Positions 22,656-40,349 of a DNA stretch of 64,000 nucleotides are shown piece by piece. Source of the stretch: Stappia indica (GTDB lineage Bacteria; Pseudomonadota; Alphaproteobacteria; Rhizobiales; Stappiaceae). The translations under genes and the position numbers were made by a program. Under the pieces are notes generated by a model. The model worked only from the letters and a program-made list of their open reading frames with translations. It was not told where the DNA came from and did no database searches. Every line of letters begins with the position of its first letter. The stretch's first letter is position 1. The stretch is taken from assembly GCF_009789575.1 (NCBI RefSeq), contig NZ_CP046908.1:1798001-1862000 (forward strand), in the 5' to 3' direction.

Positions 22656-22659
<4 letters not shown>
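21646..22659 (-). CDS. dipeptide/oligopeptide ABC transporter ATP-binding protein (DppF type)
   Basis: 337 residues. Walker A GESGCGKST, Q-loop FQDPYSSLNPR, signature LSGGQRQR and Walker B IVICDEPTSALD are all present, followed by the C-terminal oligopeptide-binding domain with the Cys pair in CHFHPRCAKVMDIC that is usual in DppF/OppF. The ATG overlaps the stop of the DppD-type gene by 4 bp. It is the energising subunit with DppD on the cytoplasmic side. Confidence 0.87.
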
Positions 22660-23642
<983 letters not shown>

Positions 23643-23647
23643 GGATC

Positions 23648-24547
23648 TCAGCCCCTGTTTTCCGGTGCGGTGACGTCGCGCAGGCCGTCGCCGAGAAGGT
23701 TGATGGCCAGCACCAGGATGAACAGCGCGACGCCCGGAATGGCGATCAGCCAGGGCTCGAACAGCATCATCTGCTTGCCTTCGGAGATCATCAGGCCCCA
23801 GGACGGGGTCGGCGGCTGCACGCCGAGGCCGAGGAACGAGAGCGCCGCCTCCAGCAGGATGGCGTGCGCCATTTCCAGCGTCGCGACGACGATCAGGTTG
23901 TTGACCACGTTCGGCATGATCTCGCGCAGGATGATGCGACGGGTCGAGCAGCCGATGGCCCTGGCGGCGTTGACGTATTCGAGGTCGCGCACCTGCAGCA
24001 CGGAGGAGCGCATCACAACCGCGAACCGGTCCCACAGCAGCAGGCCGAGGACGCAGACCACCACCTGCAGCGAGCCGCCGAGAATGGCGACGACGGCCAG
24101 CGCCACCAGCACCACCGGCATGGCGAGGCGCACGTTGATCAGGAAGGTGACGACGAGATCCACCCGGCCGCCGAAATAGCCGGCGGCAACGCCCATCGCC
24201 GTGCCGATGAGGCCGGAGATCAGCGCGGCGAACAGGCCGATGGCGAGCGAGATGCGCGCGCCGTAGAGCAGCCGCGCGAGATAGTCGCGCCCCAGATAGT
24301 CGGTGCCCAGCAGATGGTTCGGGTCCGAGCCCGCCATCCAGAACGGCGGCTTCATGCGCGCCATCAGGTCCTGGGCGTAGGGGTCGTGCGGCGTCAAGAG
24401 CGGGGCGAACAGCGCCAGCGCGACGATGATCGTCAGGACGACGATGCCGAAGACGAGACCGTAATGGCCGAAGATGCGCTTGCGCAGGAGCGCGGCCGGG
24501 CTCGGGGTGCGGAGGTCTTCCGCGACGGTTTCGATGGTGCGTGCCAT
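23648..24547 (-). CDS. dipeptide/oligopeptide ABC transporter permease (DppC type)
   Basis: 299 residues with an N-terminal cytoplasmic tail of about 30 residues, then six membrane helices. The EAA-type loop is seen around EYVNAARAIGCSTRRIILREI, the interface with the ATPases. It starts 6 bases after the DppB-type stop. Together the two permeases form the channel. Confidence 0.85.
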   Translation of the reverse strand: MARTIETVAEDLRTPSPAALLRKRIFGHYGLVFGIVVLTIIVALALFAPLLTPHDPYAQDLMARMKPPFWMAGSDPNHLLGTDYLGRDYLARLLYGARISLAIGLFAALISGLIGTAMGVAAGYFGGRVDLVVTFLINVRLAMPVVLVALAVVAILGGSLQVVVCVLGLLLWDRFAVVMRSSVLQVRDLEYVNAARAIGCSTRRIILREIMPNVVNNLIVVATLEMAHAILLEAALSFLGLGVQPPTPSWGLMISEGKQMMLFEPWLIAIPGVALFILVLAINLLGDGLRDVTAPENRG

Positions 24548-24553
24548 GTCGGA

Positions 24554-25471
24554 TCAGCCCACCCGGATGCGCGGATCGAGCCAGGCATTGACCAGATCCG
24601 ACAGGAACGTGAAGACGATGTAGAACAGCGAGAAGATCAGGATCAGCGCCTGCACGGTCGGCAGGTCGTTGCGGGCGATCGACTCCCAGGCGAGATAGCC
24701 GGCGCCGTGCAGGGCGAAGATGGACTCCACCACGATGGAGCCGCCCAGCATGAAGCCCATCTGCACGGCGGCAAGGCTGACCACCGGCACCACCGCGTTG
24801 CGCAGCGCATGCTTGAACATCACCCGCGTCTCGCTGGCGCCCTTGGCGCGCGCGGTGCGGATGTAGTCGGCGTTCAACACCTCCAGCATGCCGGCGCGCG
24901 TCAGGCGCATGATCGCCGGCATGGCGTAGTAGCCGAGCACGACGGTCGGCATGATGAAGTGCTTCCAGGTCGAGGAGCCGGACGGCGGCAGCCAGCCGAG
25001 CTGGATCGAGAAGACGACGATCAGCACCAGGCCGAACCAGAAGCTCGGCATCGCCTGGCCCATCACCGACAGGAACAGCGCGGTGCGGTCGATCAGCGAG
25101 TTCGGGCGCATCGCCGCGGCAACGCCGAGCGGAATGGCGGTGACCAGCGCGAAGGAGATGCCGCACACGCCGAGCAGCATCGTCGTCGACAGGCGCTCGC
25201 CGATCAGCTGGGCGACCGGCACGCGGAAATAGTAGCTCTGCCCGAAATCGCCCGACAGCGCGCCGAACAGCCAGTCGGCATATTGCACCATGAACGGCCG
25301 GTCGAAGCCGTAGAGGACGCGGATCGCCTCGATGTCGGTGGCGGAGGCGTTCTCGCCGGCAATCGCCGAAGCCGGATCGCCGGACATGAACAGCAGGCTG
25401 AAGCTCAGCAGCGACACGGTGAAGGTCACCAGAATGGCGAGCCCCAGCCGTTTCAGGGTGAACATAAGCAT
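24554..25471 (-). CDS. dipeptide/oligopeptide ABC transporter permease (DppB type)
   Basis: 305 residues (303 if the second ATG at 25465 is used). The first membrane helix starts almost at once (LAILVTFTVSLLSFSLLF), followed by a periplasmic loop and the conserved DYIRTARAKGASETRVMFKH coupling loop. Typical DppB length and order. Separated from the binding-protein gene by 188 bases that hold a strong hairpin. Confidence 0.85.
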   Translation of the reverse strand: MLMFTLKRLGLAILVTFTVSLLSFSLLFMSGDPASAIAGENASATDIEAIRVLYGFDRPFMVQYADWLFGALSGDFGQSYYFRVPVAQLIGERLSTTMLLGVCGISFALVTAIPLGVAAAMRPNSLIDRTALFLSVMGQAMPSFWFGLVLIVVFSIQLGWLPPSGSSTWKHFIMPTVVLGYYAMPAIMRLTRAGMLEVLNADYIRTARAKGASETRVMFKHALRNAVVPVVSLAAVQMGFMLGGSIVVESIFALHGAGYLAWESIARNDLPTVQALILIFSLFYIVFTFLSDLVNAWLDPRIRVG

Positions 25472-25602
25472 CTCGGGTTCCGATCGTCAGGCGGCCGCAT
25501 CATGCGGGGGCGGAGCGAAACGGGCTTGCCAATGGCGCAAGGAGCCGCGCTCCGGAACGGAAGGCGGACGCTCGCTCAGGCATGGCGAAGCTGCGAAAGG
25601 CA

Positions 25603-25641
25603 CGATCCGCGCCCGGCGAGAGGAAGGCCGGGCGCGGGTCG
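25603..25641 (-). other. intercistronic hairpin between peptide-binding protein and permease genes
   Basis: 15-bp stem with one G-T pair (25603-25617 and 25627-25641; core CCGCGCCCGGC) and a 9-base loop, 18 bases after the binding-protein stop. No T-run follows on the minus strand. Probably protects the upstream mRNA or partly terminates, giving more binding protein than permease. Confidence 0.6.
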
Positions 25642-25659
25642 CAGGTCTCGGCTCGGCGC

Positions 25660-27174
25660 TTAGTTCCAGCGAACGTGGAAGAAGCGCACGACCTCGTCCG
25701 GGGTCGGGGTGAAGGTCGCCTCCTTCGTGAACACGTAGTTCGCGTTGTAGGAGAACAGCGGCACCCAGTAGGCCTCGTCGGCGATCTTGTTCAGCGCCTT
25801 GGAGTAGTTCTCCTTGCGCACCGCCGGATCGACGGAGGTGTCGGCGACGTTGAGCCACTCCAGCACCTCGTCGTCACGGGCGAAGTCTTCCTTGCCGTGC
25901 TTGAAGAACTGGCTGGTGATCGCCGAGGCGTCGTTGACCGAGTAGGAGCCCCAGGTCTGGAAGCTCATGCTGGTCTCGCCCTTGTGGCGCATGTCGCGCA
26001 GGGCCGAGTACTGCAGGAACTTCAGGTTGGCCCGGATGCCGACATTGGCGAGGTAGGAGAGCATCGCCTCGGCATAGGGCCGGTCGCGGTAGGCGTAGAA
26101 GTCGACCTCGAAGCCGTCCGGATAGCCGGCCTCCGCGAGCAGCGCCTTGGCCTTCTCCGGATCGAACTCGTACTTGGTCACGTCGAGGTCGCAGCCGAAC
26201 TGGCTCGGGAAGCAGGCCGAATGCACGACCTTCGAGGCGCCCTTGAGCAGGTTGTCGACGATGGCCTGGCGGTCGATGGCATGGGCGATGGCCTGGCGCA
26301 CCTTGGTCTTGGTCATCGGGTTGTCGGCGCCGCTGCGGCCAGCCGCATCGAGCTCCAGATAGCCGACGCGCATGGTGCTCTCGTTGACGACGTTGACCCG
26401 GTCCATCATCGCCAGCTTCTCGGCCTGGTCGGCCGGCACGCCCCAGATGAAGTCGAGGCCGCCGCTGAACAGCTCGGCGAGCTGGGTGTTGATGTCGGGA
26501 ATGGTGCGGATGTCGACGGTGCCGATATTCGCCATGCCCTTCGGGCCGCCGTGATAGCCCTCGTACTTCTTCAGCACGAAATGCTTGCCGGGCTCGACGC
26601 TCTCGACCTGGTAGGGACCGGTACCGACCGGCTTCAGCGCCATGCCGGCGGGACCGGCCTCGGCGTAATACTCGTTCGGATAGATCGAGACCGGGCCGGC
26701 GAGATACTCGAGCGCGGCCGGGAACGGACCATTGGTGAAGATGCGGACGGTGTACTTGTCGACCTTCTCCGCGCCCTTCATCCAGTTGACGTTGCGCTGG
26801 ACGACGACGCCGTTCTCCGGCTTGGAGACGAACTCGACCGTGTAGACCACGTCGTCGGCGTCGAACTCCTCGCCGTTGTGGAACTTGACGCCCTCGCGCA
26901 GCTTCAGCTCCAGCGTGGTGTCGTCGACCCAGGTCCAGGAGGTCGCAAGGTTGCCCTCGTACTCGCCGGTCTCCTGGTTGAGATAGAGCAGGCCGTCCCA
27001 GATGGACCGCTGCAGGATCACGCCCTCGCGGGCGGAATTGAAGTAGCTGTCGACCGATTCCAGTTCCTTGGTGAAGGCGGCATTCAGCGTGTCGTTGGCC
27101 TTGTCGGCCATGGCGCTGCCGGCAGTCATGACGACGGCCAGGGCAACGGTGCTCATCAGGAGGCGTGTCTTCAT
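25660..27174 (-). CDS. peptide ABC transporter substrate-binding protein (SBP_bac_5)
   Basis: 504 residues of the DppA/OppA cluster C. A signal peptide spans about 1-24 (ending SAMA), and the mature N-terminus starts KANDTLNAAF. Family features include the LKLREGVKFHNGEEFDADDV region near residue 95 and a long C-terminal lobe. The ATG at 27174 is chosen over a TTG four codons upstream. It is the first gene of the operon, divergent from the IclR regulator. Fits a di- or oligopeptide, or another amide-linked solute handled by the gamma-glutamyltransferase and M20 enzymes. Confidence 0.85.
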   Translation of the reverse strand: MKTRLLMSTVALAVVMTAGSAMADKANDTLNAAFTKELESVDSYFNSAREGVILQRSIWDGLLYLNQETGEYEGNLATSWTWVDDTTLELKLREGVKFHNGEEFDADDVVYTVEFVSKPENGVVVQRNVNWMKGAEKVDKYTVRIFTNGPFPAALEYLAGPVSIYPNEYYAEAGPAGMALKPVGTGPYQVESVEPGKHFVLKKYEGYHGGPKGMANIGTVDIRTIPDINTQLAELFSGGLDFIWGVPADQAEKLAMMDRVNVVNESTMRVGYLELDAAGRSGADNPMTKTKVRQAIAHAIDRQAIVDNLLKGASKVVHSACFPSQFGCDLDVTKYEFDPEKAKALLAEAGYPDGFEVDFYAYRDRPYAEAMLSYLANVGIRANLKFLQYSALRDMRHKGETSMSFQTWGSYSVNDASAITSQFFKHGKEDFARDDEVLEWLNVADTSVDPAVRKENYSKALNKIADEAYWVPLFSYNANYVFTKEATFTPTPDEVVRFFHVRWN

Positions 27175-27228
27175 CTGCTCAATCAACCGGCGCGGAACCG
27201 GTCCCTCTGGTTTTCGATTATTATATAC

Positions 27229-28156: not shown

Positions 28157-29434
28157 TCAGGCGGCGAACCGGTCGAAGAGATCGAGCGGGCCGACCTGCC
28201 CGCCCTTGAGCATCAACCGCATGCCGTCGAGCGGCGTGCCCGGCGCATGGCCGCGGCAGACGGCAACGCCCGAACCGGCGCGGGCGACGAAGGAGAGACT
28301 CTCGAAGCCGAGGCGGCGCACCACCGCCCCCGAGGTATCGCCGCCGGCGACCGCCAGCGCGGCAACGGGATGCAGGGCGAGGATGCGCGCGGCGAGCTCG
28401 GCAAGGCTCTCGGAAAGGGCATCGGGCGCAAGGCCGTAATCGGCGTGCGGATCGAGATGGGCGAGCACGTTGGTGCCGCCGGCCAGCAGCTGGGCGCAGC
28501 GCGCCGCGAACAGCTCCCGCCCCTCCCCCGTGATGTCGGACGCGCCGAGGGCAAGGCGCGTGTAGCGCGTCGCCGTGGCGACCTGCGCCGCGGTTGCCGC
28601 CGAGCGGCTGCCGGCCAGCACCAGGCGCGGACCGGGAACCGGGCCGAGCGCAGACGCATCCGGGACGCTTTCGCCCCCCGTCTCTGCGGCCCTTCCCGCC
28701 ACCGCCTCGGCAACGCCGCTGGCGCCGACCAGCAGCAGGGGCCGGCCATGGGTTTCCAGCAGCGACAGGGCAAGGCCCAGCATCTCGATATCCGTATCGT
28801 CGACCGCATCGACCAGCACGCGGCGCCCGCTGCCGTCCGCCATGGCGGCCACACTGGCTGCGGCATCCGCAAGCTCGGGCCGCGCCAGCAGCGCGACATC
28901 GCCGAGCCCTTGCGCGGCGAGATGACGGCGCAGGTCCGCCTCCCCCATCGGCGTGACCGGATGGCGGCTCATCACCGGATGGCGGTCGATGCGGTGCACC
29001 TGCCCGTCGGGGGCACGCGCGAACAACGTGCCGAACAGGCAGAAGCGCTGCAGGCTGGGCTGGCCGCCGACAATGACGGTGAGCGCCGGCGACAGCTCCT
29101 CCTCCAGCACGGCGACGGCCGCGCCGACATTGCCCACATGCGGGGCGGAATCGAAGGTGGAGCAGATCTTGTAGTGCACGAAACGGGGCAGGCATCCCCG
29201 CACCAGCGGCATCAGGGCGCGCAGGCGCGGCTCGACCTCAGACGGCGCGCCGGCGCGAAAGTCGGTGGCGATGCCGACGGCCGGAAACGCGCCCTTGCCG
29301 CGCGGCGTCTGCGGCAGACGGGCAAGGCCTTGCCGCTCCAGGCACAGGCGCGCGGCAATGCCGGCCTCGGCCAGCGTCGCCAGCGTGTCGGACGCGCCGG
29401 TGAAATCGTCTCCGATGAAGACGTAGCCGCTCAT
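28157..29434 (-). CDS. oiaK: four-carbon acid sugar kinase family (DUF1537), OiaK-like
   Basis: 425 residues. The DUF1537 N-terminal motif IGDDFTGASDT (residues 7-17) carries the catalytic/substrate Asp residues, and the C-terminal nucleotide-binding half has AGGDTSGAVVRRLG. Kinases of this family phosphorylate tetronates, 3-oxo acids or 3-oxo-isoapionate. The gene is directly downstream (5-bp gap) of a RuBisCO-like protein gene, the pairing described for OiaK (3-oxo-isoapionate 4-kinase) and OiaX in D-apionate catabolism. The family is sure, the exact substrate is inferred from this pairing. Confidence 0.68.
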   Translation of the reverse strand: MSGYVFIGDDFTGASDTLATLAEAGIAARLCLERQGLARLPQTPRGKGAFPAVGIATDFRAGAPSEVEPRLRALMPLVRGCLPRFVHYKICSTFDSAPHVGNVGAAVAVLEEELSPALTVIVGGQPSLQRFCLFGTLFARAPDGQVHRIDRHPVMSRHPVTPMGEADLRRHLAAQGLGDVALLARPELADAAASVAAMADGSGRRVLVDAVDDTDIEMLGLALSLLETHGRPLLLVGASGVAEAVAGRAAETGGESVPDASALGPVPGPRLVLAGSRSAATAAQVATATRYTRLALGASDITGEGRELFAARCAQLLAGGTNVLAHLDPHADYGLAPDALSESLAELAARILALHPVAALAVAGGDTSGAVVRRLGFESLSFVARAGSGVAVCRGHAPGTPLDGMRLMLKGGQVGPLDLFDRFAA

Positions 29435-29439
29435 GCCCG

Positions 29440-30738
29440 TTACCCGGCCTTTTTCCCGAAGAAGGAGAGCGCCCCGGCAAGCTCCGGCCGGGAGCGTGCA
29501 GCCTGCTCCAGATCCTCGTTCGCGGCGACCGCCTCCCAGGCCTGGCGCAGGCTGGCGACGCCAGCCGCCGGGCCCGAAGGATGGGCGAGGATGCCCCCGC
29601 CCGCCATGAACAGGAAGTCGCTCGACCCGGCGGCCTGCGCCGTAACCGGCAGCGTGCCGGCCCACTGGCCGGAGGAGAAGGCCGGCATCACCGCGTCCGA
29701 GGCATCCGGTGCGTCAACGGCGAGCGGCTGGAGGCAGCGGCGCGCCGCCTCCTCCACCTCTTGGGGAGCGTCGGAGAACTTGCCGCCGATGCCGTGCACA
29801 TGCATGTGGTCGACGCCGGCAAGGCGGTAGAGCGCCTGATAGGCGTCGAAGCCGATGCCGAGCAACGGATGGCGGGCGAAGGCGCCGAAGCCGTTGCGAT
29901 GGCCGTGCACGACGAGCGGCGTGGACCGGCGCAGCGACTGCATCGCCGACAGGCCGCACCAGTTGAGGCTGGCCATGACGCAGGACCCGCCCTCGCGCTC
30001 CACCAGATCCGCATGGCGGCGCATGGCGTCGAGCTCGTCGGTGATGTTGAAGGCGACCATGACAGTGCGGCCGCTGCGCTCGCGATAGGCCCGCACCTGA
30101 GCCATCACCGCGCGGACCCGCGCCTCCAGCGGCGCATGGTCCGGGTCGGCGCAGATCTCGTCGTCCTTGATGAACTCGACGCCGGCCTCGCAAAGATCCG
30201 CCACCAGCGCGGCGATCTCGTCGGCGCTCAGGCCGACATTCGGCTTGATGATGGTGCCGAAGAGCGGCCGACCAGCCACGCCGAGCACCGCGCGGGTGCC
30301 GCCAACGCCGTGCAGCGGCAGGTCGAACCGGGTGCGGCAGGCCTGCGGCAGGGCGACATCGACGAGGCGAAGCCCGGTGACCTCGCCGAGATCGTAGAGA
30401 TTGCCGGCGACCGTGGCGGCAAGGGTCGGCAGGTTGGTGCCGATATTGGCGAGCGGATAGGCGATGCGCACCCGTGCGCGCCGCCAGGGGCCGGGCGTGC
30501 CCTGCCGCTCGAGCCAGGCGCTGGCAAGGCTCGGGGCGCTCGCCGGCGCCAAGTCCTCGACGGACAGCACCTCGGCGCCGGCACGGGCGCGGAGTTCGTC
30601 GCTCTCGCCGGCAACACGCACGAAGGTGCCGCAGCTCTGCTCGCCGGCCATGATCGCCGCGACCTTTTCCGGCGCGAGCGGCGTCTCGATCAGATAGGTC
30701 GCCTCGACGCTGTCGGCTTTGAGGGGGATCGCCTGCAT
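29440..30738 (-). CDS. oiaX: RuBisCO-like protein (form IV), OiaX-like
   Basis: 432 residues of the RuBisCO large-subunit fold. Visible active-site parts are K165 in GTIIKPNVGL, the metal-binding K191-D-D-E in FIKDDE (the Lys that is carbamylated in RuBisCO), VVHGHRNGFGAF, a loop-6-like GIGGKF with Lys, and the phosphate-site AGGGILAHPSGPAAG. These look catalytically intact. OiaX acts on 3-oxo-isoapionate 4-phosphate to give 3-phosphoglycerate and glycolate, and the neighbouring DUF1537 kinase would make that substrate. It is not a CO2-fixing enzyme: no small subunit or phosphoribulokinase gene is present. Confidence 0.7.
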   Translation of the reverse strand: MQAIPLKADSVEATYLIETPLAPEKVAAIMAGEQSCGTFVRVAGESDELRARAGAEVLSVEDLAPASAPSLASAWLERQGTPGPWRRARVRIAYPLANIGTNLPTLAATVAGNLYDLGEVTGLRLVDVALPQACRTRFDLPLHGVGGTRAVLGVAGRPLFGTIIKPNVGLSADEIAALVADLCEAGVEFIKDDEICADPDHAPLEARVRAVMAQVRAYRERSGRTVMVAFNITDELDAMRRHADLVEREGGSCVMASLNWCGLSAMQSLRRSTPLVVHGHRNGFGAFARHPLLGIGFDAYQALYRLAGVDHMHVHGIGGKFSDAPQEVEEAARRCLQPLAVDAPDASDAVMPAFSSGQWAGTLPVTAQAAGSSDFLFMAGGGILAHPSGPAAGVASLRQAWEAVAANEDLEQAARSRPELAGALSFFGKKAG

Positions 30739-30746
30739 CGCCCGCC

Positions 30747-31286
30747 TCAGATCGCGGAAAGGTCGGGGAAGGGACGGACCGGATCGCTGCCGTCCCAGCC
30801 TTCCGAGGCAGCGCGGATCAGGTCGAACATCCGGCCCTTCGGCCCCATCACCTCGGACAGCTCGATCACCGTGCCGGGATGGGCCTCGCGGTCGAAATAG
30901 GCGAAGCGGCCGTTCGCCCCGACCTTGCCGCTCATCTTCACGCGGAAGCCTTCGGCCTCCATGCGGGCGAGATCCGCGTCGTAATCTTGCGTCCAGTAGG
31001 CGACATGCTGCAGCCCGCGATGGCCGGCGAGCCGGAAGTCGCGATACATCGACGGGGCGTCGTTGCGGGTCTGGATCAGCTCGACCTGCACCTCGCCGCT
31101 GTTGGCCAGCGCAACGGAATTGTGGACCTTGAAGGACTGGCCGTCATAGCGGTAGTCCTCGATGGGCACCTTGGGATTGTAGTACCACGGGCCGACGCCC
31201 ATGACCTTGTGCCAATGCTCCATCGCCGCCTCGATGTCGTCGACCACGTAGCCGAGCTGGCGGATTGCGCCGAGAAACCTGCTCAT
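30747..31286 (-). CDS. VOC-superfamily protein in the RuBisCO-like operon
   Basis: 179 residues, two-module vicinal-oxygen-chelate fold. Candidate metal ligands are H94 in GLQHVAYW and E142 in VIELSE; the first module has Gln (Q10 in RQLGYVV) where many relatives have His, and a further Gln at 67. No signal peptide. It lies 8 bases from both neighbours (DctM and the RuBisCO-like gene), so it belongs to the same pathway. Epimerase, isomerase or dioxygenase action on the imported branched acid is possible; function not known. Confidence 0.72.
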   Translation of the reverse strand: MSRFLGAIRQLGYVVDDIEAAMEHWHKVMGVGPWYYNPKVPIEDYRYDGQSFKVHNSVALANSGEVQVELIQTRNDAPSMYRDFRLAGHRGLQHVAYWTQDYDADLARMEAEGFRVKMSGKVGANGRFAYFDREAHPGTVIELSEVMGPKGRMFDLIRAASEGWDGSDPVRPFPDLSAI

Positions 31287-31294
31287 GAAGAACC

Positions 31295-32572
31295 CTATTG
31301 CGAGAGAAGTCGGGGAAGCCACGTCGACACGGCCGGCACGGCCGAGACGACCAGCAGCGACAGCGCGAGGGGCAGGAAGAAGGGCAGCACGCCGCGGATG
31401 ACCGAATGGACCGGCATCCTGGCGACGATGGAGACCATGTAGAGGCTCATGCCGATGGGCGGCGTCAGCAGCCCGATCATCAGGTTGAGCACGAAGACGA
31501 TGCCGAGCTGCAGCGGATCGACGCCGGCCTGGTGCAGCGCCGGGGCGACGATGGGCGCGATGATCAGGATCGCCGCGATGGATTCCAGGAACATGCCGAC
31601 GACGAGCAGCAGCACGTTGACCAGCAGCAGCAGCACGAGCGGATTGTCGGAAAGCCCCAGAAGCATCTGCCCGGCCATCGCCGGGACCTGGTCGAGCGTC
31701 AGCACCCAGGCGAAGACGGCGGCCGTCGACACGATGAACAGGATGCCGGCGGTCGCCTCCACCGTTTCGCGCAGGCTCTCCCACACGGCCTTGAGGGTGA
31801 GCGAACGGTAGACGAGGAAGCCGATGGCCAGCGCATAGGCGACCGTGACGCCGGCGACTTCGGTGGGGCCGAAATAGCCGCTGAGCAGCCCGCCGATCAG
31901 GATCACCGGGGCGACCAGCGCCGGCAGCGAGATCACCGCCTTGCGGGCGACGGCGCGCAGCGACGGGCTGACCGTGTCGCGCGGCAGGTTGTAGATGCGC
32001 GCCATGACGGCGACCTGCACCATCAGGAAGGCCGTGATCAGCAGCGCCGGGACGATGCCGGCGACCAGCAGCTGCACCGCCGAGACATTGGTGACGCTGG
32101 CATAGATGATCAGCGGGATGGAGGGCGGGAAGATCGGCCCGATGGTCGCCGCCGCGATGGTGATGCCGGCGGCGAAATCGCGCCGGTAGCCCTGCGCCGA
32201 CATCTGGTCGATCTGGATCTTGCCGAGCGCGCCGATATCGGCGAGTGCGGCGCCCGAGACGCCGGAAAAGATCAGGCTGACGAGGATCGACACCTGCGCG
32301 ACCGCGCCGCGGATGCGCCCGACGACGAGCCGCACCAGGTCGAAGATATGGGTTGTGACGCCCATCGCGTTGAGCAGGCTCGCCGCCAGGATGAACAGCG
32401 GCACGGCGAGCAGCGGCGTCGAATCGAGCGCGTTGATGCCGCGCTGCGCCAAGACATGCACCGGCAGGTCGAAGGCGGCGATGGCCAGTGCCGAGGCAAG
32501 GCCGAGGGCAACGGCAATCGGCGCGCCGAGCAGCAGCGCGGCGGAAAAGACGAGGAGAAGCAGGAGGCTCAT
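31295..32572 (-). CDS. dctM: TRAP transporter large permease, DctM family
   Basis: 425 residues, about 12 membrane helices, standard DctM length. Conserved segments are FSGVSGAALADIGALGKIQI (about 104-123), ATIGPIFPPSIPLIIYASVT and GLLTPPIGMSLYM. It starts within the DctQ stop (4-bp overlap). It is the ion-coupled translocation subunit for the sugar acid fed to the kinase and RuBisCO-like pair. Confidence 0.88.
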   Translation of the reverse strand: MSLLLLLVFSAALLLGAPIAVALGLASALAIAAFDLPVHVLAQRGINALDSTPLLAVPLFILAASLLNAMGVTTHIFDLVRLVVGRIRGAVAQVSILVSLIFSGVSGAALADIGALGKIQIDQMSAQGYRRDFAAGITIAAATIGPIFPPSIPLIIYASVTNVSAVQLLVAGIVPALLITAFLMVQVAVMARIYNLPRDTVSPSLRAVARKAVISLPALVAPVILIGGLLSGYFGPTEVAGVTVAYALAIGFLVYRSLTLKAVWESLRETVEATAGILFIVSTAAVFAWVLTLDQVPAMAGQMLLGLSDNPLVLLLLVNVLLLVVGMFLESIAAILIIAPIVAPALHQAGVDPLQLGIVFVLNLMIGLLTPPIGMSLYMVSIVARMPVHSVIRGVLPFFLPLALSLLVVSAVPAVSTWLPRLLSQ

Positions 32573-33123
32573 GGCAGGGCCTGATCGGAACCGGGGAGCG
32601 TCTGGCCGCGAAGAAGCGCGAGCAGGCGGGCAAGGGTGACCAGCGCCAGCAGCACCATCGCGACGATGGCCGGCGCGTAGAACACCCAGTTGGGGATGCC
32701 GAGGGTCGGGGTGGCGAATTTCCACGCCCGGCCGAGAAAACGGTAGAGCCCGTAGAGGAAGAAGAGCGAGAAGGCGAGGACGCTGAGCTCGACCAGCAGG
32801 CCGGTCCAGCGGCGGGCAGGCGCCGGCAGCGACATCGGCACCAGATCCACCGCCACATGCCGGCCCTGCAGGGCGAGCAACGGCACGCAGAGGAAGACGA
32901 GCGCGACGCCGCAGAAGCGGGCGAGCTCGTCCGCCCAGGGCATGCCGAGATCGAGCAGGTTGCGGCCGAGCACCTGGCCGACGACCAGCACGCTCATCGC
33001 CATCAGCAGCAGCACGGCGAGGGTGCGGCAGCACGCCGCCGCACCTGCAAGGAGCCTGCCGCCCGGGGGGACGGGACCGGCCCCTCCGGAATCAGGGGAG
33101 ACGGGGTCAGTCGCGCCGGTCAT
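32569..33123 (-). CDS. dctQ: TRAP transporter small permease, DctQ family
   Basis: 184 residues with an extended Pro/Gly-rich N-terminus of about 30 residues and then four membrane helices. The loop GMPWADELARFCGVALVF is the DctQ signature. The gene lies between dctP (30-bp gap) and dctM (overlap), forming a standard dctPQM order. Confidence 0.83.
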   Translation of the reverse strand: MTGATDPVSPDSGGAGPVPPGGRLLAGAAACCRTLAVLLLMAMSVLVVGQVLGRNLLDLGMPWADELARFCGVALVFLCVPLLALQGRHVAVDLVPMSLPAPARRWTGLLVELSVLAFSLFFLYGLYRFLGRAWKFATPTLGIPNWVFYAPAIVAMVLLALVTLARLLALLRGQTLPGSDQALP

Positions 33124-33153
33124 GGCCGCACTTCTCGCTCAACGTTCGGGCGA

Positions 33154-34173
33154 TCAGGAGATCGCGCGGATCTTCTCATAGAGGGCGCCGTATTTTTCGC
33201 CGAAGCGCTCGTTGACGAGCTTGCTGACCGAGGCGCGGAAGGCCTCCACGTCGAGCCCGTCTTCCGGCCCGATCACCGTCATGCCGGCCTCGCGCAGCGC
33301 CTGAGTATCCTTGGCCTCGTTGTCCTGGATCGCCTTGGTGGCGCGCTCGCGGATCTCCAGCGCAGCGGCGGCAACCGCCTCCTTCTGGGCCGGCGACAGG
33401 GCCTGCCAGGCGTCCTCGTTCATCACCACGACCTCGGCATTGGACATGTGGCCGGTCAGCATCAGATGCGACTGCACGTCGTAGAGCTTGACGTTGAGGA
33501 TGACGTTGACCGGGTTCTCCTGGCCGGCGACGACGCCGGTGGCAAGCGCGGTGGGCACTTCCGACCAGTCGACCGGAACCGGAGCTGCGCCCATGCCCTC
33601 GATGGCGGCCTGGTAGATCGGGAAAGGCACGGCGCGGATCTTCTCGCCGGCAAGGTCGGCCGGCTTGTAGACCGCCTTGTTGGCGGTGAGATTGCGGCGG
33701 CCGAAATAGTGGGCGTAGATCACGCGGACATTGGCCGCCTGGATCAGGCCCTGGTTGAGCTCCTGCATCACCGGCGAATTGATGTCCATCACCTTCATCA
33801 GGTGGTCGACGTCGCGATAGAGATAGGGCGTGTCGAGCGCCGCGAAGGGCTCGTAGAGCGAGCCGATGCCGCCGGCGGTGTTGTGCGAGAAGGCGATGGT
33901 GCCGAGCGAGACAGCCTCGGCCAGCTCCTGCAGCTTGCCGAGCTGGGAGGAGGGATAGACCTGCACGGCGACGTCGCCGCCCGAATGCTTGGCCACCGCT
34001 TCCGCGAACCAGTCGGCCTGGGCACCGGCGACGCTGGCCGGCTCGTTGTTGTGGCCGTAGCGCAGGGTGAGCGACTGGGCGCGGGCGAAGCCCGGCGCCA
34101 TGGCGAAGGCACCCGCACCGAGACCGAGCGCAAGGGCGCCGCGCCGCGTGACGGAAAACAGCTGTCTGGTCAT
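33154..34173 (-). CDS. dctP: TRAP transporter substrate-binding protein, DctP family
   Basis: 339-residue periplasmic protein. The signal has a twin-arginine look (TRRGALALGLGAG) and ends FARA, so Tat export is possible. The mature domain has RYGHNNEPAS, the long helix region with ELAEAVSLGTIAFSHNTAG, and the carboxylate-pairing Arg region around GEKIRAVPFPIY. The ATG at 34173 follows GGGAGGA; upstream in-frame codons lie in the promoter. First gene of the operon, divergent from the LacI-type gene. Confidence 0.86.
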   Translation of the reverse strand: MTRQLFSVTRRGALALGLGAGAFAMAPGFARAQSLTLRYGHNNEPASVAGAQADWFAEAVAKHSGGDVAVQVYPSSQLGKLQELAEAVSLGTIAFSHNTAGGIGSLYEPFAALDTPYLYRDVDHLMKVMDINSPVMQELNQGLIQAANVRVIYAHYFGRRNLTANKAVYKPADLAGEKIRAVPFPIYQAAIEGMGAAPVPVDWSEVPTALATGVVAGQENPVNVILNVKLYDVQSHLMLTGHMSNAEVVVMNEDAWQALSPAQKEAVAAAALEIRERATKAIQDNEAKDTQALREAGMTVIGPEDGLDVEAFRASVSKLVNERFGEKYGALYEKIRAIS

Positions 34174-34220
34174 TGCATCCTCCCAAGATGGTTCCATGGC
34201 CCGGCTTTTCCGAAGGCTCA

Positions 34221-34343
34221 TGAGGTATTTTGACGGCCTTGAATAGATGGAGACCGCCGAAATCCGTTCCTCTTGACAAAAGGCTACGAAGCCGTGAGCA
34301 TCACGTCAAACATCAAATATTGAGGTATTTTGAGGTGCCCTCA
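34221..34343. promoter_or_regulatory. paired operator candidates between dctP and the LacI-type gene
   Basis: TGAGGTATTTTGA occurs twice, at 34221-34233 and 34321-34333, exactly 100 bp apart and in the same orientation. The second copy is joined to TCAAATATTGA (34313-34323) and TGAGG-N3-CCTCA (34331-34343), both perfect palindromes; the first copy starts in CTCATGAG (34217-34224). Two operators in one divergent promoter would suit repression by DNA looping. Also TTGACA at 34273-34278 could be a -35 box. Confidence 0.5.
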
Positions 34344-35402
34344 GGAGAGATCCAGCTCCCGTCCCAGATCCCGTCCCAGATCCCATCCATGGCGGACCTG
34401 GCCGAAGCGGCCGGCGTGTCGCTGGCGACCGTCGACCGGGTGCTGAACCGCCGCAAGGGCGTCAAGGACCGCACGGTCGCCCGGGTGCTCGCGGCGGCGG
34501 TGGAGCTCGGCTACATGAGCGCGGAGGAGCGCGACAAGCTGGGCGGCCAGCGCCCGCCGAACGTCGCCTTCCTGCTGCCGATGGGCAGCAACCCCTATCT
34601 GCGCCTGCTGGGCGACAAGGTGCGCGGCGTCGCCGACACCCAGACGCGCGATGCATCGCCGCTGCGCTGCTTCTTCATCGAGAGCTTCGATGCCGGCGCG
34701 CTGGCCGCGGCCCTGCGCCACCACGCCCGCTGGGCCGACGGCATCGCCTTCATGGCCATCGACCACCCCTTGGTGCGCGAGGCGGCGGAAGAGGTGAGCG
34801 CGGCCGGCACCCGGCTCGTCACCATCGTCTCCGACCTGCCGCACCCGGCGCGCGAGGCCTATGTCGGGCTCGACAACCAGGCGGCCGGGCGCACGGCGGC
34901 CCTGCTGCTCGGCCGGTTCTGCGGCGCGCGCGAGGGCAGCGTCGCGCTGGTCGCCGGCAGCCGCACCTACCGCGCCCACGCGGAGCGCGAGATGGGGTTC
35001 CTCGGCCTGCTGGAGGAGAGCTACCCGGACCTCAGGGTCGTCGGCATGCGCGAGGGCCACGACGACCGCAACGAGAACTACAACCACACCCGCTCGCTGC
35101 TGGAGCAGAACCCGGACCTCGTCGGCATCTACAATGTCGGCGGCTCGTCCGACGGCATCGCCCGGGCGCTCGCCGAAAAGGGGATGGGCGAGCGGGTCGT
35201 GTTCATCGGCCACGGCCTGACCGCCGACACCCGCCGCCTGCTGATCGAGGGCACGATGGACGCGGTGATCAACTCCGACCCGGACCAGGTGATCGGCGAG
35301 ACGCTGGCCCGTTTCGCGCAGCCGGCAGGCGGCGCCGGCCTGCGCCCGCCGCTGAAGATGGACCTGATCTTCCGCGAGAACATCCCCTCGCAATATCTTT
35401 AA
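34335..35402 (+). CDS. LacI-family regulator with sugar-binding (periplasmic-binding-like) domain
   Basis: About 355 residues. The helix-turn-helix ADLAEAAGVSLATVDRVLNRR is clear, and the effector domain begins about PNVAFLLPMGSNPYL and continues to the end. LacI proteins need a few residues before the helix, so I favour the GTG at 34335 (GAGG 9 bases upstream) over the ATG at 34389, which lacks a ribosome site and would clip the first helix. The N-terminal extension holds a SQIPSQIPS micro-repeat made by a 12-bp tandem duplication. It probably represses the divergent TRAP/oiaXK operon. A weak AACCG/CGGTT hairpin overlaps its stop. Confidence 0.78.
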   Translation: MPSGEIQLPSQIPSQIPSMADLAEAAGVSLATVDRVLNRRKGVKDRTVARVLAAAVELGYMSAEERDKLGGQRPPNVAFLLPMGSNPYLRLLGDKVRGVADTQTRDASPLRCFFIESFDAGALAAALRHHARWADGIAFMAIDHPLVREAAEEVSAAGTRLVTIVSDLPHPAREAYVGLDNQAAGRTAALLLGRFCGAREGSVALVAGSRTYRAHAEREMGFLGLLEESYPDLRVVGMREGHDDRNENYNHTRSLLEQNPDLVGIYNVGGSSDGIARALAEKGMGERVVFIGHGLTADTRRLLIEGTMDAVINSDPDQVIGETLARFAQPAGGAGLRPPLKMDLIFRENIPSQYL

Positions 35403-35918: not shown

Positions 35919-36110
35919 ATGCTAAATTACAGCGAGAAGTCCCTGAAAAAAGCGCCGCCAAACGCATCGGATGGCGATGTCCACTCTCGCATCAGCAACC
36001 AGCTGCAAACCTACTACAACGAGGTGCTGACCCAGCCCCTGCCCCAAAGGTTCGAGGACCTGCTGAGGAAACTGGACGAAAACGGCGGTTCCGAGGGGGA
36101 GACCCGGTAA
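35919..36110 (+). CDS. nepR: NepR-type anti-sigma factor (copy 1)
   Basis: 63 residues from ATG 35919. The conserved NepR core is seen: ISNQLQTYYNEVLTQPLPQRFEDLLRKLDE (quoted in part: QLQTYYNEVL and PLPQRFEDLL), two helices that clamp EcfG and, in stress, phosphorylated PhyR. The start is fixed by the EcfG promoter at 35861-35885; AAGAAGGA lies upstream of the ATG. The stop overlaps the ecfG1 start by one base (TAATG), giving tightly coupled anti-sigma and sigma synthesis. Confidence 0.85.
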   Translation: MLNYSEKSLKKAPPNASDGDVHSRISNQLQTYYNEVLTQPLPQRFEDLLRKLDENGGSEGETR

Positions 36111-36688
36111 TGAGCGAGCACAGCGTCGAGCTGAAAGACGAGATGGTGGCCTGCATTCCCAGCCTGCGCGCCTTCGCGGCGTCGCTGGTCGGGATGGGCG
36201 ACCGCGCCGACGACCTGGTCCAGGAAGCCTTGATGAAGGCGTGGTCCAATCTCGGCCGCTTCGAGCCCGGCACCAACATGAAGGCCTGGCTGTTCACGAT
36301 CCTGCGCAACACGCTCTACTCGACGCACCGCAAGCGCAAGCGCGAGGTGCAGGACGTGGACGGCCGCTATTCGGCAACGCTCGCCTCCCATCCCAATCAG
36401 ATGGGGCATCTCGACCTCGACGACTTCTGCCGGGCTCTCGACCAGCTTCCCGACGACCAGCGCGAGGCCTTGATCCTCATCGGGGCCTCCGGCTTTTCCT
36501 ATGAGGAGGCCGCCGAGATTTGCGGCTGTGCCATCGGCACGGTAAAAAGTCGCGTCAACCGCGCCCGCGCCCGGCTGGCCGACATCATGGGAACAGAGTC
36601 GACGAGCGAGTTCGGACCGGATCGAGCCGTGGAAGCTGTCCTCGCCCTTTCTCCCGGTTCGACGGTGAAGATCAGTGCCATGGAGTAA
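36110..36688 (+). CDS. ecfG: EcfG-type ECF sigma factor (copy 1), general stress response
   Basis: 192 residues. Region 2 (about 15-80) has DDLVQEALMKAWSNLGRF and the -10-binding TNMKAWLFTILRN; region 4 (about 115-165) has LPDDQREALILIGASGFSYE and the recognition helix IGTVKSRVNRARARL. These are hallmarks of the ECF15/EcfG group. It directs RNA polymerase to GGAAC-N16/17-CGTT promoters when NepR is removed by PhyR-P. It has a C-terminal tail of about 25 residues rich in Ser/Ala not shared with copy 2. It overlaps the downstream kinase gene by 14 bp. Confidence 0.9.
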   Translation: MSEHSVELKDEMVACIPSLRAFAASLVGMGDRADDLVQEALMKAWSNLGRFEPGTNMKAWLFTILRNTLYSTHRKRKREVQDVDGRYSATLASHPNQMGHLDLDDFCRALDQLPDDQREALILIGASGFSYEEAAEICGCAIGTVKSRVNRARARLADIMGTESTSEFGPDRAVEAVLALSPGSTVKISAME

Positions 36689-38327
36689 ACTGCCGCCCAA
36701 CAGCACCCGGCTTGATCGACGGCTGTTCGCGCATATTGCGGCAGCCCTCATCCCCCTCGCCGCTCTCGCCTTCCTGCTGTCCTATTCCGATCTCGAGCGA
36801 CGGTCCCAGGAGGAGCACAGGCGCTTCCTGGACTATGCCCGCCTGATCGGACAGTCGAGCGCCAAGGCGATTGCGCGTGCCGAAGGCTATGCCAGCGCGC
36901 TGACCTCCCAGGACCCCCAGGTCCTGGGAGATTGCCGTCGTGTCTTCTCCGCCATGCGCGAGGACCTGATCGAGGCGACCGAACTTGCCATCTTCCGCGG
37001 CGAGGTGCCCGTGTGCAGCCTCGGCCTCGGCGAGGACGGTCAGGTGGTGCAGCGCCCGCTGGGAACGCCGGGCGACGCCGTTTCCGGCCCCTCCGCCAAG
37101 ACCATCACGATCTCCAGGACCAACGAGGCCAGCGGCACCCGCATCGATATCGGCCTGCGGCCGCAGACGCTGCTGATCGCCCCGATCACCGCGACGGCGG
37201 CGACCAATATCGGCTTTGCCCTCGTCGACAAGAACAGTGCGGTGCTCGCCTCCCATGTCTACGAGGAGAACGACATCGGCAACTTCCTGCAGATCGTCGG
37301 CGAAACGCGCGCCGACGGGGCGGACTTTTCCGAAAGCGACCGCGGCTGGTTCGTTGGCTCCAGCGTGCTGCCCGGCACCGAATACCGGGTCGTGACCGCC
37401 AGCCGGTCGTCGGAACACCGGCTGGAACTGTGGCTGACCGTAATGCGCGCGCTGTTGCCGCCGCTCATCCTGCTGGCGGTCGTCTTCGTGGTGCTGCGCT
37501 ACGGCATCCAGCGGTTCCTGCTGCGCTATCTCAGCCACATCTATTCGACCTTCCGCCAGTACGGCACGGGAAACACACGCGCGCGCGTCGGGCAACTGGC
37601 GGGCGCCGCGCCGGAGATCGACCTGCTCGGCGTGACCTTCGACATGATGGCCGACCGGATCGAACGGCGCACCCACGACACCGAGGCCGCCCTCGCCGAA
37701 CAGCGCCGGCTGAGCCGGGAACTGCATCACCGCATCAAGAACACGCTGCAGATGATCATCAGCCTGGTCAGCATGCAGCGCCGCGACGCGACGGGCCCGC
37801 GCGAGAAGGCGGCCCTTCGGGTGACGCTGGAGCGGATCCTGGCGATCTCGGCCGCCTACCGGGTGTCCTACGCCTCGACCGAGGGCACCAATGTGGCGCT
37901 GACGGCGCTGGTGCACGAGGTGGTGGAGGCCTTGCGGGGACCGGCAACGCTGCCGCAGGGCCGTGTCCGCATCCAGACCAATGCCGGCGCCAATGCCGCG
38001 GAGATCGACCTCGACCGCGCGATCCCGCTCGCCTTCATCCTGGCCGAGCTGCTGCCGCCGCGGTTCGACTGCCTGCTGCCGGGAGAGGTCCTCACCATCG
38101 AACTGGCCGGGGCCGACAGGATCGCCATGGTGATTTCCGGCGCCAGCCAGATCAACGACACGCTGGACGGCAACGAGACGGGCACGCCGGCCTCGCTGCG
38201 CTCGCGCCTGGTCCATGCCTATCTCCACCAGCTCGACGCGACCTGCGGCATGGAGGATGCAACGGCCCGGCTGGAGATCCCGCTGCACCCGGTTCCCGGA
38301 CCGCAGGCCTCCGCCTCGATGCACTGA
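36675..38327 (+). CDS. membrane HisKA_2-type kinase homologue with degenerate ATPase domain (PhyP/PhyK-like)
   Basis: 550 residues. Membrane helices at about 17-37 and 258-276 flank a periplasmic sensor domain of about 220 residues; a HAMP-like linker leads to the dimerisation helix with the phosphoacceptor H351 in ELHHRIKNTLQM. The C-terminal domain is odd: where HisKA_2 kinases have the N-box ELVTNALKH, this protein has ELLPPRFDC, so the Asn that binds magnesium-ATP is Pro; the D-x-G of the G1 box is also missing (VISGASQIN). It can hardly bind ATP in the usual way, and may act as a PhyR phosphatase like Sphingomonas PhyP. GTG start inside ecfG1. Confidence 0.78.
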   Translation: MPWSKLPPNSTRLDRRLFAHIAAALIPLAALAFLLSYSDLERRSQEEHRRFLDYARLIGQSSAKAIARAEGYASALTSQDPQVLGDCRRVFSAMREDLIEATELAIFRGEVPVCSLGLGEDGQVVQRPLGTPGDAVSGPSAKTITISRTNEASGTRIDIGLRPQTLLIAPITATAATNIGFALVDKNSAVLASHVYEENDIGNFLQIVGETRADGADFSESDRGWFVGSSVLPGTEYRVVTASRSSEHRLELWLTVMRALLPPLILLAVVFVVLRYGIQRFLLRYLSHIYSTFRQYGTGNTRARVGQLAGAAPEIDLLGVTFDMMADRIERRTHDTEAALAEQRRLSRELHHRIKNTLQMIISLVSMQRRDATGPREKAALRVTLERILAISAAYRVSYASTEGTNVALTALVHEVVEALRGPATLPQGRVRIQTNAGANAAEIDLDRAIPLAFILAELLPPRFDCLLPGEVLTIELAGADRIAMVISGASQINDTLDGNETGTPASLRSRLVHAYLHQLDATCGMEDATARLEIPLHPVPGPQASASMH

Positions 38328-38356
38328 GCGCCGCGCATCTCGTCTTCAATCTTTCG

Positions 38357-38383
38357 GGCCGGCAGGGATCTGTCGGCCTTTTT
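38357..38383 (+). terminator. rho-independent terminator after the nepR1-ecfG1-kinase operon
   Basis: 8-bp stem with one G-T pair (GGCCGGCA, 38357-38364; TGTCGGCC, 38371-38378) directly followed by TTTTT, 30 bases after the kinase stop. Confidence 0.75.
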
Positions 38384-38413
38384 CGTCTGTCGTCCGGCAC
38401 GAGGCGGCCCAAC

Positions 38414-38450
38414 ACAAAAAGGCGCCGCGGGGGTTGAGACCCCGCGGCGC
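38414..38450 (-). terminator. rho-independent terminator for the DUF1328 gene
   Basis: Perfect 11-bp stem (GCGCCGCGGGG, 38422-38432, and its complement 38440-38450) followed on the minus strand by a T-run (A-run at 38416-38420). It lies 66 bases downstream of the minus-strand DUF1328 stop. Confidence 0.8.
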
Positions 38451-38516
38451 AGCAGGCAGGCGGACAGACGAGGGAGGAGTGAGCAGGCCGCCTGCGTCGA
38501 CGGTCGATGGCTGCTG

Positions 38517-38696
38517 TCAGACCGTCGGCGGGCGCCGGCCGCTGATGAGACCGTAGACCAGCGAAATCACGAAGAGGATGATCGCGATGACGAAGATGAG
38601 CTTGGCGATGCCCATGGCCGTACCGGCGATCCCGCCGAAACCCAACACCGCCGCAATCAACGCGACAACCAGGAAGGTCAGAGCCCAACCGAACAT
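38517..38696 (-). CDS. DUF1328 small membrane protein
   Basis: 59 residues, two membrane helices (about 4-22 and 28-50) with the DUF1328 pattern [27 protein letters not shown] lies 8 bases before the ATG at 38696. Proteins of this family (such as E. coli YtjA) are small, stress-linked and of unknown function. I found no exact EcfG promoter upstream, although all neighbours are stress genes. It has its own terminator. Confidence 0.8.
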
Positions 38697-39316
38697 GTTA
38701 TTTCTCCTTTGAACAGCGTCCCGGTAGCGCAAATCCGTTTCGCGGAACCGGTACTCGTGTCCCATGCGGCGACAAGAACGGGTCGATTACTGAAGCAACC
38801 CTGCTTGCCTTGCGCTTGCACCATCGTGCATGGTCATGAAGTCAACCCGCCAGCAGAAGATTTGTTCAATCCGGTCTGAACTTTTTTTGAAGAGGCGCGC
38901 GATCGACAGCGCCTCCCGCCCTGACAGGCCGGAACGCGGGAGAGCGGATCGGCCGGGCGAAGGCCGAAGCCGGACCGGCCGGCATTTTTTCCAAAAACAC
39001 CTGCCGCAGGCGCAGGCTCGCCCCCCCTTACGCCCCCCTTTCGCGCGCGCCTTACGCGCGTGCATGACGCGCGCGTCAAGTCGCGCCCGCGCGCACCTGT
39101 TCTTTTTGCCGAGGCGCCCGCCACTGTTGCCGAGTGGCGCCTGCAGGACCTGCCCATAAAGAAGAAAAGCACACGGAAAATCGAAGAATCGTGATTGCGG
39201 CCGGAACCTTTCTCCGGCGAGAGGGTTCTTCTACCGTGACCGGAACGAAACCTGAGCCGAACCCAAGATCGGCACGCAGGTTCGGGTTACGAGACATCAA
39301 TCAGGAGACTAAAGAC
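38697..39316. other. 620-bp non-coding region with GC palindromes
   Basis: No credible gene on either strand. It holds the leader of the DUF1328 gene, a T7 run near 38881, a GC-rich stretch with the 12-bp palindrome GACGCGCGCGTC (39066-39077) and ACGCGCG/CGCGCGT arms (39054-39060, 39070-39076), polypyrimidine C-runs at 39021-39040, and an EcfG-like promoter at 39203-39227 for the PRC-barrel gene. The alternating CG tracts stand out even in this GC-rich genome. A small RNA here cannot be ruled in or out from sequence. Confidence 0.5.
39203..39227 (+). promoter_or_regulatory. EcfG-like promoter variant (GGAAC-N16-GGTT)
   Basis: GGAAC at 39203-39207 and GGTT at 39224-39227, correct 16-base spacing with one mismatch to CGTT. 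It lies 90 bases before the PRC-barrel gene. The same GGTT variant occurs before csbD in this island, which supports it. Confidence 0.5.
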
Positions 39317-39886: not shown

Positions 39887-39909
39887 TCGATCGACACAGG
39901 CAGTCAAAG

Positions 39910-39940: not shown

Positions 39941-39993
39941 TCCGTTGCCCGCCGCAGGACGGCGGCAACGTTTCTTTCCTGAAGGAGACCCCC

Positions 39994-40344: not shown

Positions 40345-40349
40345 CCGCA

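What the first reader, a model, noticed from the sequence alone, without database searches (positions are those of the whole stretch)
28157..34173. RuBisCO-like protein, DUF1537 kinase and TRAP importer in one operon: apionate-type pathway with a new VOC member
The operon dctPQM-VOC-RLP-kinase contains the OiaX/OiaK pair known to split 3-oxo-isoapionate 4-phosphate, but no ApnO-type oxidoisomerase, transaldolase or decarboxylase lies near. The VOC protein, wedged between transporter and RLP with 8-base gaps, could supply the missing isomerisation step or mark a pathway for a different branched acid. The RLP keeps the Lys that is carbamylated in RuBisCO.
Basis: partly seen in the sequence, partly recalled or inferred. 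Interest (0 to 1): 0.78.

Follow-up and report, generated by a model that had tools for sequence, protein, structure and literature searches.

The report
Glyoxalase-fold enzyme coupled to RuBisCO-like protein
A small bacterial operon probably imports and breaks down an unidentified organic acid with a RuBisCO relative, using an unstudied glyoxalase-type enzyme where the known plant-sugar (apiose) pathway uses an unrelated enzyme.

Summary
The operon is real: TRAP importer (dctP-Q-M), VOC protein, RuBisCO-like protein (RLP) and DUF1537 kinase, with 8-base gaps on both sides of the VOC gene. The labels OiaX/OiaK are too specific: both proteins score far below those curated cut-offs. The RLP keeps 12 of 15 RuBisCO active-site positions compared. 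The genome holds a second RLP-kinase pair beside an ApnO-family gene, 1.3 Mb away.

The VOC-RLP-kinase trio is strongly conserved. Of 80 loci found with the VOC protein alone, 78 carry RLP and kinase; none has an ApnO-family hit. Conversely, all 7 close RLP relatives among 398 genomes, and all 18 listed on plasmids, have the VOC next door. Window-type RLPs form one clade (100/100), yet L108 and L217 pair the VOC with RLPs of another, mostly ApnO-associated clade, in genomes without an ApnO-family hit. Importers are swapped; the trio stays. VOC and ApnO thus look like alternative entry steps.

Best mechanism (inferred): a metal-dependent VOC isomerase makes, without redox, the 3-oxo acid that kinase and RLP consume. 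The substrate is unknown. The boldest guess is a branched aldehyde acid such as aceric acid.

The parts
34230..35402 (+). LacI-family regulator, divergent from the operon; homologues start near codon 31 (about 34320)
   Evidence: PF00356 47.3 and PF13407 129.7 bits; LacI hit in 78 of 80 related loci
33154..34221 (-). dctP, TRAP solute-binding protein
   Evidence: PF03480 199.9 bits; nearest solved relatives by sequence 4p9k/4pak, 4pdh, 4pdd
32569..33123 (-). dctQ, TRAP small permease
   Evidence: PF04290 96.2 bits
31295..32572 (-). dctM, TRAP large permease; start inferred at the Met three residues inside the 31295-32581 stretch that was scanned
   Evidence: PF06808 362.8 bits; TIGR00786 378.5 against cut-off 268.45
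30747..31286 (-). VOC protein (179 aa), proposed metal-dependent isomerase; candidate ligands Q10, E69, H94, E142
   Evidence: PF13669 88.4 bits; ligand candidates invariant in 93 of 93; AF2 model pLDDT 93.4; best fold match 3gm5, Z 17.1
29440..30738 (-). RuBisCO-like protein (432 aa); clade signature IIKPN and HRNG[FY]
   Evidence: PF00016 211 bits; PDB 3nwr 642.7 bits; residues
28157..29434 (-). DUF1537 four-carbon acid-sugar kinase (425 aa)
   Evidence: PF07005 161.4 and PF17042 68.9 bits

Best explanation
A LacI-controlled catabolic operon for a small carboxylic acid. The TRAP importer brings in the acid. The VOC enzyme, using a bound metal, converts it by enediolate (proton-shift) isomerisation into a 3-oxo acid; it stands where ApnO stands in the apionate pathway, but without NAD. 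The DUF1537 kinase phosphorylates the 3-oxo acid. The RLP then cleaves or decarboxylates the phosphorylated beta-keto acid, more probably by the transcarboxylase/hydrolase route (3-phosphoglycerate plus a small hydroxy acid) than by the OiaX decarboxylase route. Shown here: gene content, trio conservation, absence of ApnO-family hits at the VOC loci, pairing of the VOC with RLPs of two clades, retained RLP catalytic residues, invariant VOC ligand candidates. Inferred: LacI control, order of steps, VOC reaction, RLP reaction, substrate.
For: Trio: 78 of 80 loci fetched with the VOC protein carry RLP and kinase hits, 0 of 80 an ApnO-family hit (loci of 3.6-18.5 kb); the misses are L057 and the 3.6-kb contig L120. 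In the 77 loci with a window-type RLP it lies on the VOC strand and its aligned start is within 140 bases of the VOC stop. Converse: all 7 genomes with an RLP of at least 63% identity among 398, and all 18 listed plasmid RLPs of at least 62% (19 counted at 60-80%), have the VOC adjacent. Re-pairing: window-type RLPs form one clade, 100/100 (35 rows, 38 rows); L108 and L217 carry the VOC beside RLPs at two different places in another clade (17 rows, 100/97), where 11 of the 15 other rows have an ApnO-family gene in the stretch read; neither genome has a PGDH_C hit. ApnO independence: 33 of 53 distinct VOC genomes have no PGDH_C hit (repeats counted once; many are drafts). Importer swapped while the trio stays: two unlike TRAPs, and an ABC transporter with SBP_bac_3 in L105. 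L105 fuses RLP and kinase. VOC stays with importer and LacI where no RLP is near (L057, L150), as expected of an entry step. RLP: E60, N123, K201, D203, E204, H294, R295, H327, K334, S379 and G403 in 35 of 35, K175 in 34 of 35 (one gap); the one above-cut-off OiaX aligned (L167) has D, G, Q, C at 60, 123, 327, 379.
Against: No enzyme was assayed and no ligand is known. The window-clade RLP does not match RuBisCO at 3 of 15 positions compared (173, 177, 298), and differs at 177 and 298 from 20 of 23 and 22 of 23 other RLPs; its kinase differs at four fixed positions from six other kinases, one of them from L108. This suggests a different substrate rather than convergence on 3-oxo-isoapionate. 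L108 and L217 keep the residues of the other clade, so the VOC product may not be one compound everywhere. In the trees L108 is nearest to two plasmid RLPs (L177, L183) with dehydrogenases and no annotated ApnO-family gene nearby, so its link to ApnO is weak. L057 has no RLP at its VOC locus but an RLP-kinase pair with an ApnO-family gene elsewhere. Against a redox-free route: L148 starts its operon with a dehydrogenase, and 7 of 80 loci have an SDR-type hit within about 9 kb, on either strand, none inside the operon. The candidate metal ligands also occur in 9 of 9 relatives of 40-56% identity without RLP hits nearby, so they do not single out this reaction. L150 has VOC and importer beside an OiaK-like kinase, PdxA and an aldolase, with no RLP in the 24.5 kb read.
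Confidence: 0.48

Rival explanations
1. VOC is a C2-epimerase of a 3-oxo (beta-keto) acid, like methylmalonyl-CoA epimerase acting between two carbonyls; the imported acid is already a 3-oxo acid of the wrong configuration, and kinase and RLP follow.
For: Nearest solved fold is a putative methylmalonyl-CoA epimerase, 3gm5, Z 17.1, 1.9 A over 138 residues, then S. coelicolor epimerase at Z 12.8; sequence hits point the same way.
Against: TIGR03081 27.7 bits against 114.95; the genome has another gene above that cut-off, 170.8 bits. First and second ligand positions read Q and E, whereas P. shermanii epimerase has His12 and Gln65 (recalled; E69 aligns with position 65 of chain 1jc4). A branched 3-oxo-isoapionate has no proton at C2 to exchange.
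Confidence: 0.15
2. VOC replaces ApnO for apionate itself: it carries out the hydroxymethyl migration (ketol rearrangement) on 2-oxo-apionate made by a dehydrogenase encoded elsewhere, giving 3-oxo-isoapionate.
For: No ApnO-family hit at 80 of 80 VOC loci; an RLP of a mostly ApnO-associated clade sits in one operon with the VOC in L217, in a single-contig genome without PGDH_C hit.
Against: No dehydrogenase was seen inside the operon except in L148. At least 20 of 53 VOC genomes also carry a PGDH_C gene and would not need it. RLP and kinase residues differ from the ApnO-associated types.
Confidence: 0.15
3. VOC is accessory: it removes a reactive by-product (dicarbonyl or lactone) or helps sense the substrate, and is not a pathway step.
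For: Glyoxalase-like proteins often detoxify dicarbonyls (general knowledge); VOC stays with importer and LacI in L057 and L150.
Against: VOC is better conserved than RLP and kinase (84-85% against 71-72% and 48-49% between two genera), is next to every close RLP examined, and also occurs with RLPs of another clade.
Confidence: 0.12

Closest known systems
ApnO-OiaK-RLP routes for D-apiose/D-apionate (Carter et al. 2018; paper not held; known here through passages of PMC6302742, NCBIfam models, and recall)
   Same: RLP plus DUF1537 kinase plus importer; same protein families
   Different: ApnO-family gene absent from 80 of 80 VOC loci, a VOC protein there instead; RLP and kinase far below OiaX/OiaK cut-offs
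RLP of PDB entry 3nwr
   Same: 642.7 bits over nearly the full length; same clade signature IIKPN and HRNGY
   Different: Listed only as 'a rubisco-like protein', no function named. Source organism Burkholderia fungorum is recalled
Methylmalonyl-CoA epimerase / glyoxalase I (VOC superfamily)
   Same: Fold; ligand order Q-E-H-E is that of human glyoxalase I (recalled)
   Different: Below the epimerase cut-off; operon without CoA or glutathione enzymes
3-oxo-tetronate pathway (OtnI/OtnK/OtnC; recalled)
   Same: Isomerase, DUF1537 kinase, beta-keto-acid cleavage, in that logic
   Different: Kinase 161.2 bits against the 3-oxo-tetronate kinase cut-off 350; VOC and RLP in place of OtnI and OtnC

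Membership tests
OiaX (NF042437) | Curated cut-off 700 bits | tested here: not met
   387.8 bits; the genome's other RLP 411.6; L167, a true member, 791
OiaX (NF042437) | Active-site residues of a true OiaX (D60, G123, Q327, C379 in L167; one sequence only) | tested here: not met
   E, N, H, S in 35 of 35 window-type RLPs
OiaK (NF042436) | Curated cut-off 700 bits | tested here: not met
   220.5 bits
RuBisCO superfamily | PF00016 cut-off and carbamylation/metal motif KDDE | tested here: met
   211.0 bits against 30.1; K201, D203, E204 in 35 of 35
Type III RuBisCO (TIGR03326) | Curated cut-off 497.45 bits | tested here: not met
   237.5 bits
RLP transcarboxylase/hydrolase (Xanthobacter type) | Conversion of 3-oxo-isoapionate 4-phosphate to 3-phosphoglycerate and glycolate (products recalled) | not testable with these tools
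   No model or sequence of that enzyme was at hand; suggested only by retained catalytic residues
ApnO-dependent apionate pathway | ApnO-family (PGDH_C) gene at the locus | tested here: not met
   0 of 80 VOC loci; none in the window; own genome has one 1.3 Mb away
DUF1537 kinases | PF07005 and PF17042 above cut-off | tested here: met
   161.4 and 68.9 bits
VOC superfamily | PF13669 cut-off and glyoxalase fold | tested here: met
   88.4 bits against 27; fold
VOC superfamily | Bound metal | not testable with these tools
   Ligand candidates Q10, E69, H94, E142 in 93 of 93; binding not shown
Methylmalonyl-CoA epimerase (TIGR03081) | Curated cut-off 114.95 bits | tested here: not met
   27.7 bits
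HPPD-type VOC dioxygenase | Iron ligands two His and one Glu (recalled) | tested here: inconclusive
   Candidate ligands are Q, E, H, E, but HPPD folds match at Z up to about 11.8 and no metal site was modelled

The most novel reading that the evidence does not exclude
The VOC protein is a metal-dependent aldose-ketose isomerase, a chemistry for which I recall no VOC example, acting on a branched aldehyde acid. Isomerising aceric acid (3-C-carboxy-5-deoxy-L-xylose of the pectin RG-II; structure recalled) would give exactly the methyl homologue of 3-oxo-isoapionate; kinase and an RLP of the transcarboxylase/hydrolase type would then give 3-phosphoglycerate plus lactate, with no redox step and no other enzyme. 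An oxidised apiose ('apiuronate') would give 3-oxo-isoapionate itself. The Trp to Phe/Tyr change at RLP position 298 could make room for the extra carbon (geometry recalled, not modelled). Against it: none of nine glycoside-hydrolase-locus proteins used as probes rang near the VOC loci, L108 and L217 keep Trp, and no source links the operon to aceric acid.
Probability: 0.14. Interest if true: 0.85.

Novelty: new variant of a known kind. Interest (0 to 1): 0.62.

Why it matters
It separates a widespread RLP clade (Alpha-, Beta- and Gammaproteobacteria) from the characterised OiaX family and ties it to one specific unstudied enzyme. It gives context to a solved structure whose listing names no function (3nwr). 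If the VOC enzyme is the entry isomerase, it is a redox-free alternative to ApnO and a likely new activity for the VOC superfamily, in a pathway short enough to rebuild in vitro from three proteins.

Tried and rejected

Literature: searches listed no paper that by title or abstract start deals with a VOC-RLP-kinase pathway or with aceric acid breakdown by an RLP. They cover only the open-licence library; I saw listings, plus passages of PMC6302742. The four papers listed for aceric acid were not opened.

Rejected: 'the pair is OiaX/OiaK'; 'the VOC is the genome's methylmalonyl-CoA epimerase'; 'VOC neighbourhood is chance'. More distant VOC relatives (40-56%) lie in other neighbourhoods, so only the close group was used for counts.

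Dropped rows, double counts, limits: the second tree leaves out form I RuBisCO, L172 and L185, all long branches in the first. Two plasmid counts exceed their listings by one: 19 RLPs counted at 60-80%, 18 listed; 20 VOCs counted at 60% or more, 19 listed. PGDH_C counts: 5 of 16 VOC genomes (which also searched three others), 14 of 32, 2 of 7; minus two repeats, 20 of 53 with and 33 without. The window's own genome was not searched with PF16896. RLP signature: L057, L111, L120 unread. Of the 21 places listed, 13 regions were fetched.
Full report
What is there. In transcription order on the minus strand it is dctP, dctQ, dctM, VOC, RLP, DUF1537 kinase, with a divergent LacI gene upstream. Gaps are 8 bases before and 8 after the VOC gene and 5 before the kinase. 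The window lies at G000:C1:1798001-1862000 of a 5.1-Mb single-contig genome; the closest named relatives of the operon, 96-97% in the VOC protein, come from Stappia.

Not OiaX/OiaK proper. NCBIfam gives the RLP 387.8 bits and the kinase 220.5 bits against cut-offs of 700 each. RLPs above the OiaX cut-off exist as separate genes in two genomes, G050 and G069, that also carry the window-type operon; one of them, L167, scores 791 bits. In an alignment with a form I RuBisCO I compared 15 positions (spinach numbering recalled). All 35 window-type RLPs keep E60, N123, K201, D203, E204, H294, R295, H327, K334, S379 and G403, and 34 of 35 keep K175 (one gap); positions 173, 177 and 298 differ from RuBisCO. 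L167 has D60, G123, Q327 and C379. PDB entry 3nwr is a close homologue, 642.7 bits, with the same clade signature.

A second locus in the same genome. A paralogous RLP and kinase lie at about C1:3.12 Mb, next to a PGDH_C gene (236.4 bits; the ApnO family, by recall) and about 5 kb from a second TRAP importer. A third DUF1537 gene lies at 3.135 Mb. The window operon is thus an additional RLP-kinase route.

The VOC gene belongs to the pathway. A scan of genome contigs with the VOC protein alone kept 80 loci (the cap; 106 encoded relatives), 71-97% identical. Of these, 78 have RLP and kinase hits; L057 and the contig-end L120 do not; none of 80 has an ApnO-family hit. In 77 the RLP is of window type, on the VOC strand, with its aligned start within 140 bases of the VOC stop (negative values in that list reflect overlaps or alignment offsets). 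From the other side: in a phylum sample of 398 genomes, 7 hold an RLP of at least 63% identity and all 7 have the VOC next to it; on plasmids the 18 listed RLPs of at least 62% all have it. Of 19 listed plasmid VOCs of at least 65%, 18 are beside such an RLP; the exception is L150. In the phylum sample all 8 genomes with a VOC of at least 69% have RLP and kinase beside it (own genome); three of these are also among the 80 loci.

Swaps show what the VOC gene goes with. The importer changes from one TRAP type to another, and to an ABC transporter in L105, while VOC-RLP-kinase stays. In L105 RLP and kinase are fused in one 861-residue ORF. Window-type RLPs form one clade with 100/100 support in two trees (35 rows; 38 rows). 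Two exceptions bear most on function: L108 and L217 have the VOC gene beside RLPs that fall at different places inside another clade of 17 rows (100/97). Of its 15 other rows, 11 have an ApnO-family gene in the stretch read (OWN, L026, L030, L166, L168, L169, L170, L171, L173, L174, L182) and in 4 none was seen (L176, L177, L178, L183). L217 groups with the ApnO-bearing L168 (96/74); L108 groups with L177 and L183, which have dehydrogenases instead. In L217 regulator, importer, VOC, RLP and kinase sit together. Neither genome has a PGDH_C hit (L217's is a single contig, L108's a MAG). Over three searches 33 of 53 distinct VOC genomes have no PGDH_C hit. VOC and ApnO thus look like alternative entry enzymes of related RLP-kinase modules. 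Several other RLP-kinase modules on plasmids carry dehydrogenases or reductases nearby.

What the VOC protein could do. The AF2 model (pLDDT 93.4) matches a putative methylmalonyl-CoA epimerase best (3gm5, Z 17.1), but the protein is far below the epimerase cut-off and the genome has another gene above it. Q10, E69, H94 and E142 are invariant in 93 of 93 pathway VOCs and present in 9 of 9 more distant relatives, so they mark the subfamily. Fixed in the pathway group and different in all seven 47-56% relatives compared are P41, I42, Y45, N56, M118, V122, V146, P149, F173 and L176. A Q-E-H-E order is that of human glyoxalase I, whose metal holds an enediolate (recalled). A dehydrogenase was seen inside a VOC operon only in L148; SDR-type hits lie within about 9 kb in 7 of 80 loci, outside the operon. 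From this I infer a redox-free isomerisation yielding the 3-oxo acid for the kinase.

Evidence that the substrate is not 3-oxo-isoapionate. In 76 of 77 readable RLPs from VOC loci position 177 is N and position 298 is F or Y; L108 has S and W, and so does L217. Of 23 other RLPs compared, 20 have S and 22 have W. Kinases differ at four fixed positions between 11 window-type sequences and 6 others, one of the six from L108. These changes favour a different, perhaps larger substrate; L108 and L217 argue for a common one. I leave this open. The bold reading in the section on the most novel reading (aceric acid) fits the chemistry and nothing here excludes it, but nothing here shows it either, and no probe from two glycoside-hydrolase-rich RLP loci rang near the VOC loci.

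Verdict. A real, widely conserved variant of the RLP/DUF1537 acid-sugar module, with a VOC enzyme as probable entry step, for which the ten library searches listed no description.

Noticed in passing
window 36110-42484: ECF-type sigma factors at 36110-36688 (+) and 40781-41563 (-), an HWE/HisKA_2 sensor kinase at 36675-38327 and a PhyR-type response regulator at 41690-42484: looks like an alphaproteobacterial general stress response cluster.
   Followed up: partly
window 21646-27186 (-): Peptide-type ABC transporter (SBP_bac_5 binding protein, BPD permease, ATPase with oligo_HPY) on the far side of IclR from the operon.
   Followed up: no
L105:9592-12177: RLP and DUF1537 kinase fused in one 861-aa ORF in Paenalcaligenes.
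   Followed up: partly
L150:3477-12543: Azospirillum thermophilum plasmid: VOC-TRAP-LacI without RLP in the stretch, beside an OiaK-like kinase (473 bits, below the 700 cut-off), PdxA and a DhnA-type aldolase.
   Followed up: partly
L176:5172-9525: Croceibacterium plasmid: RLP-kinase pair directly after a beta-L-arabinofuranosidase-domain gene, among fucosidase and galactosidase genes, with no ApnO-family or VOC gene annotated.
   Followed up: no
L219, L220, L221, L222, L224: A second VOC group, 54-56% identical with the same candidate metal ligands, in other neighbourhoods without RLP hits.
   Followed up: partly
L172:6405-8991: A divergent RLP-kinase pair in a same-genus genome (G084) with neither ApnO-family nor VOC hits in the 17 kb read.
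   Followed up: no
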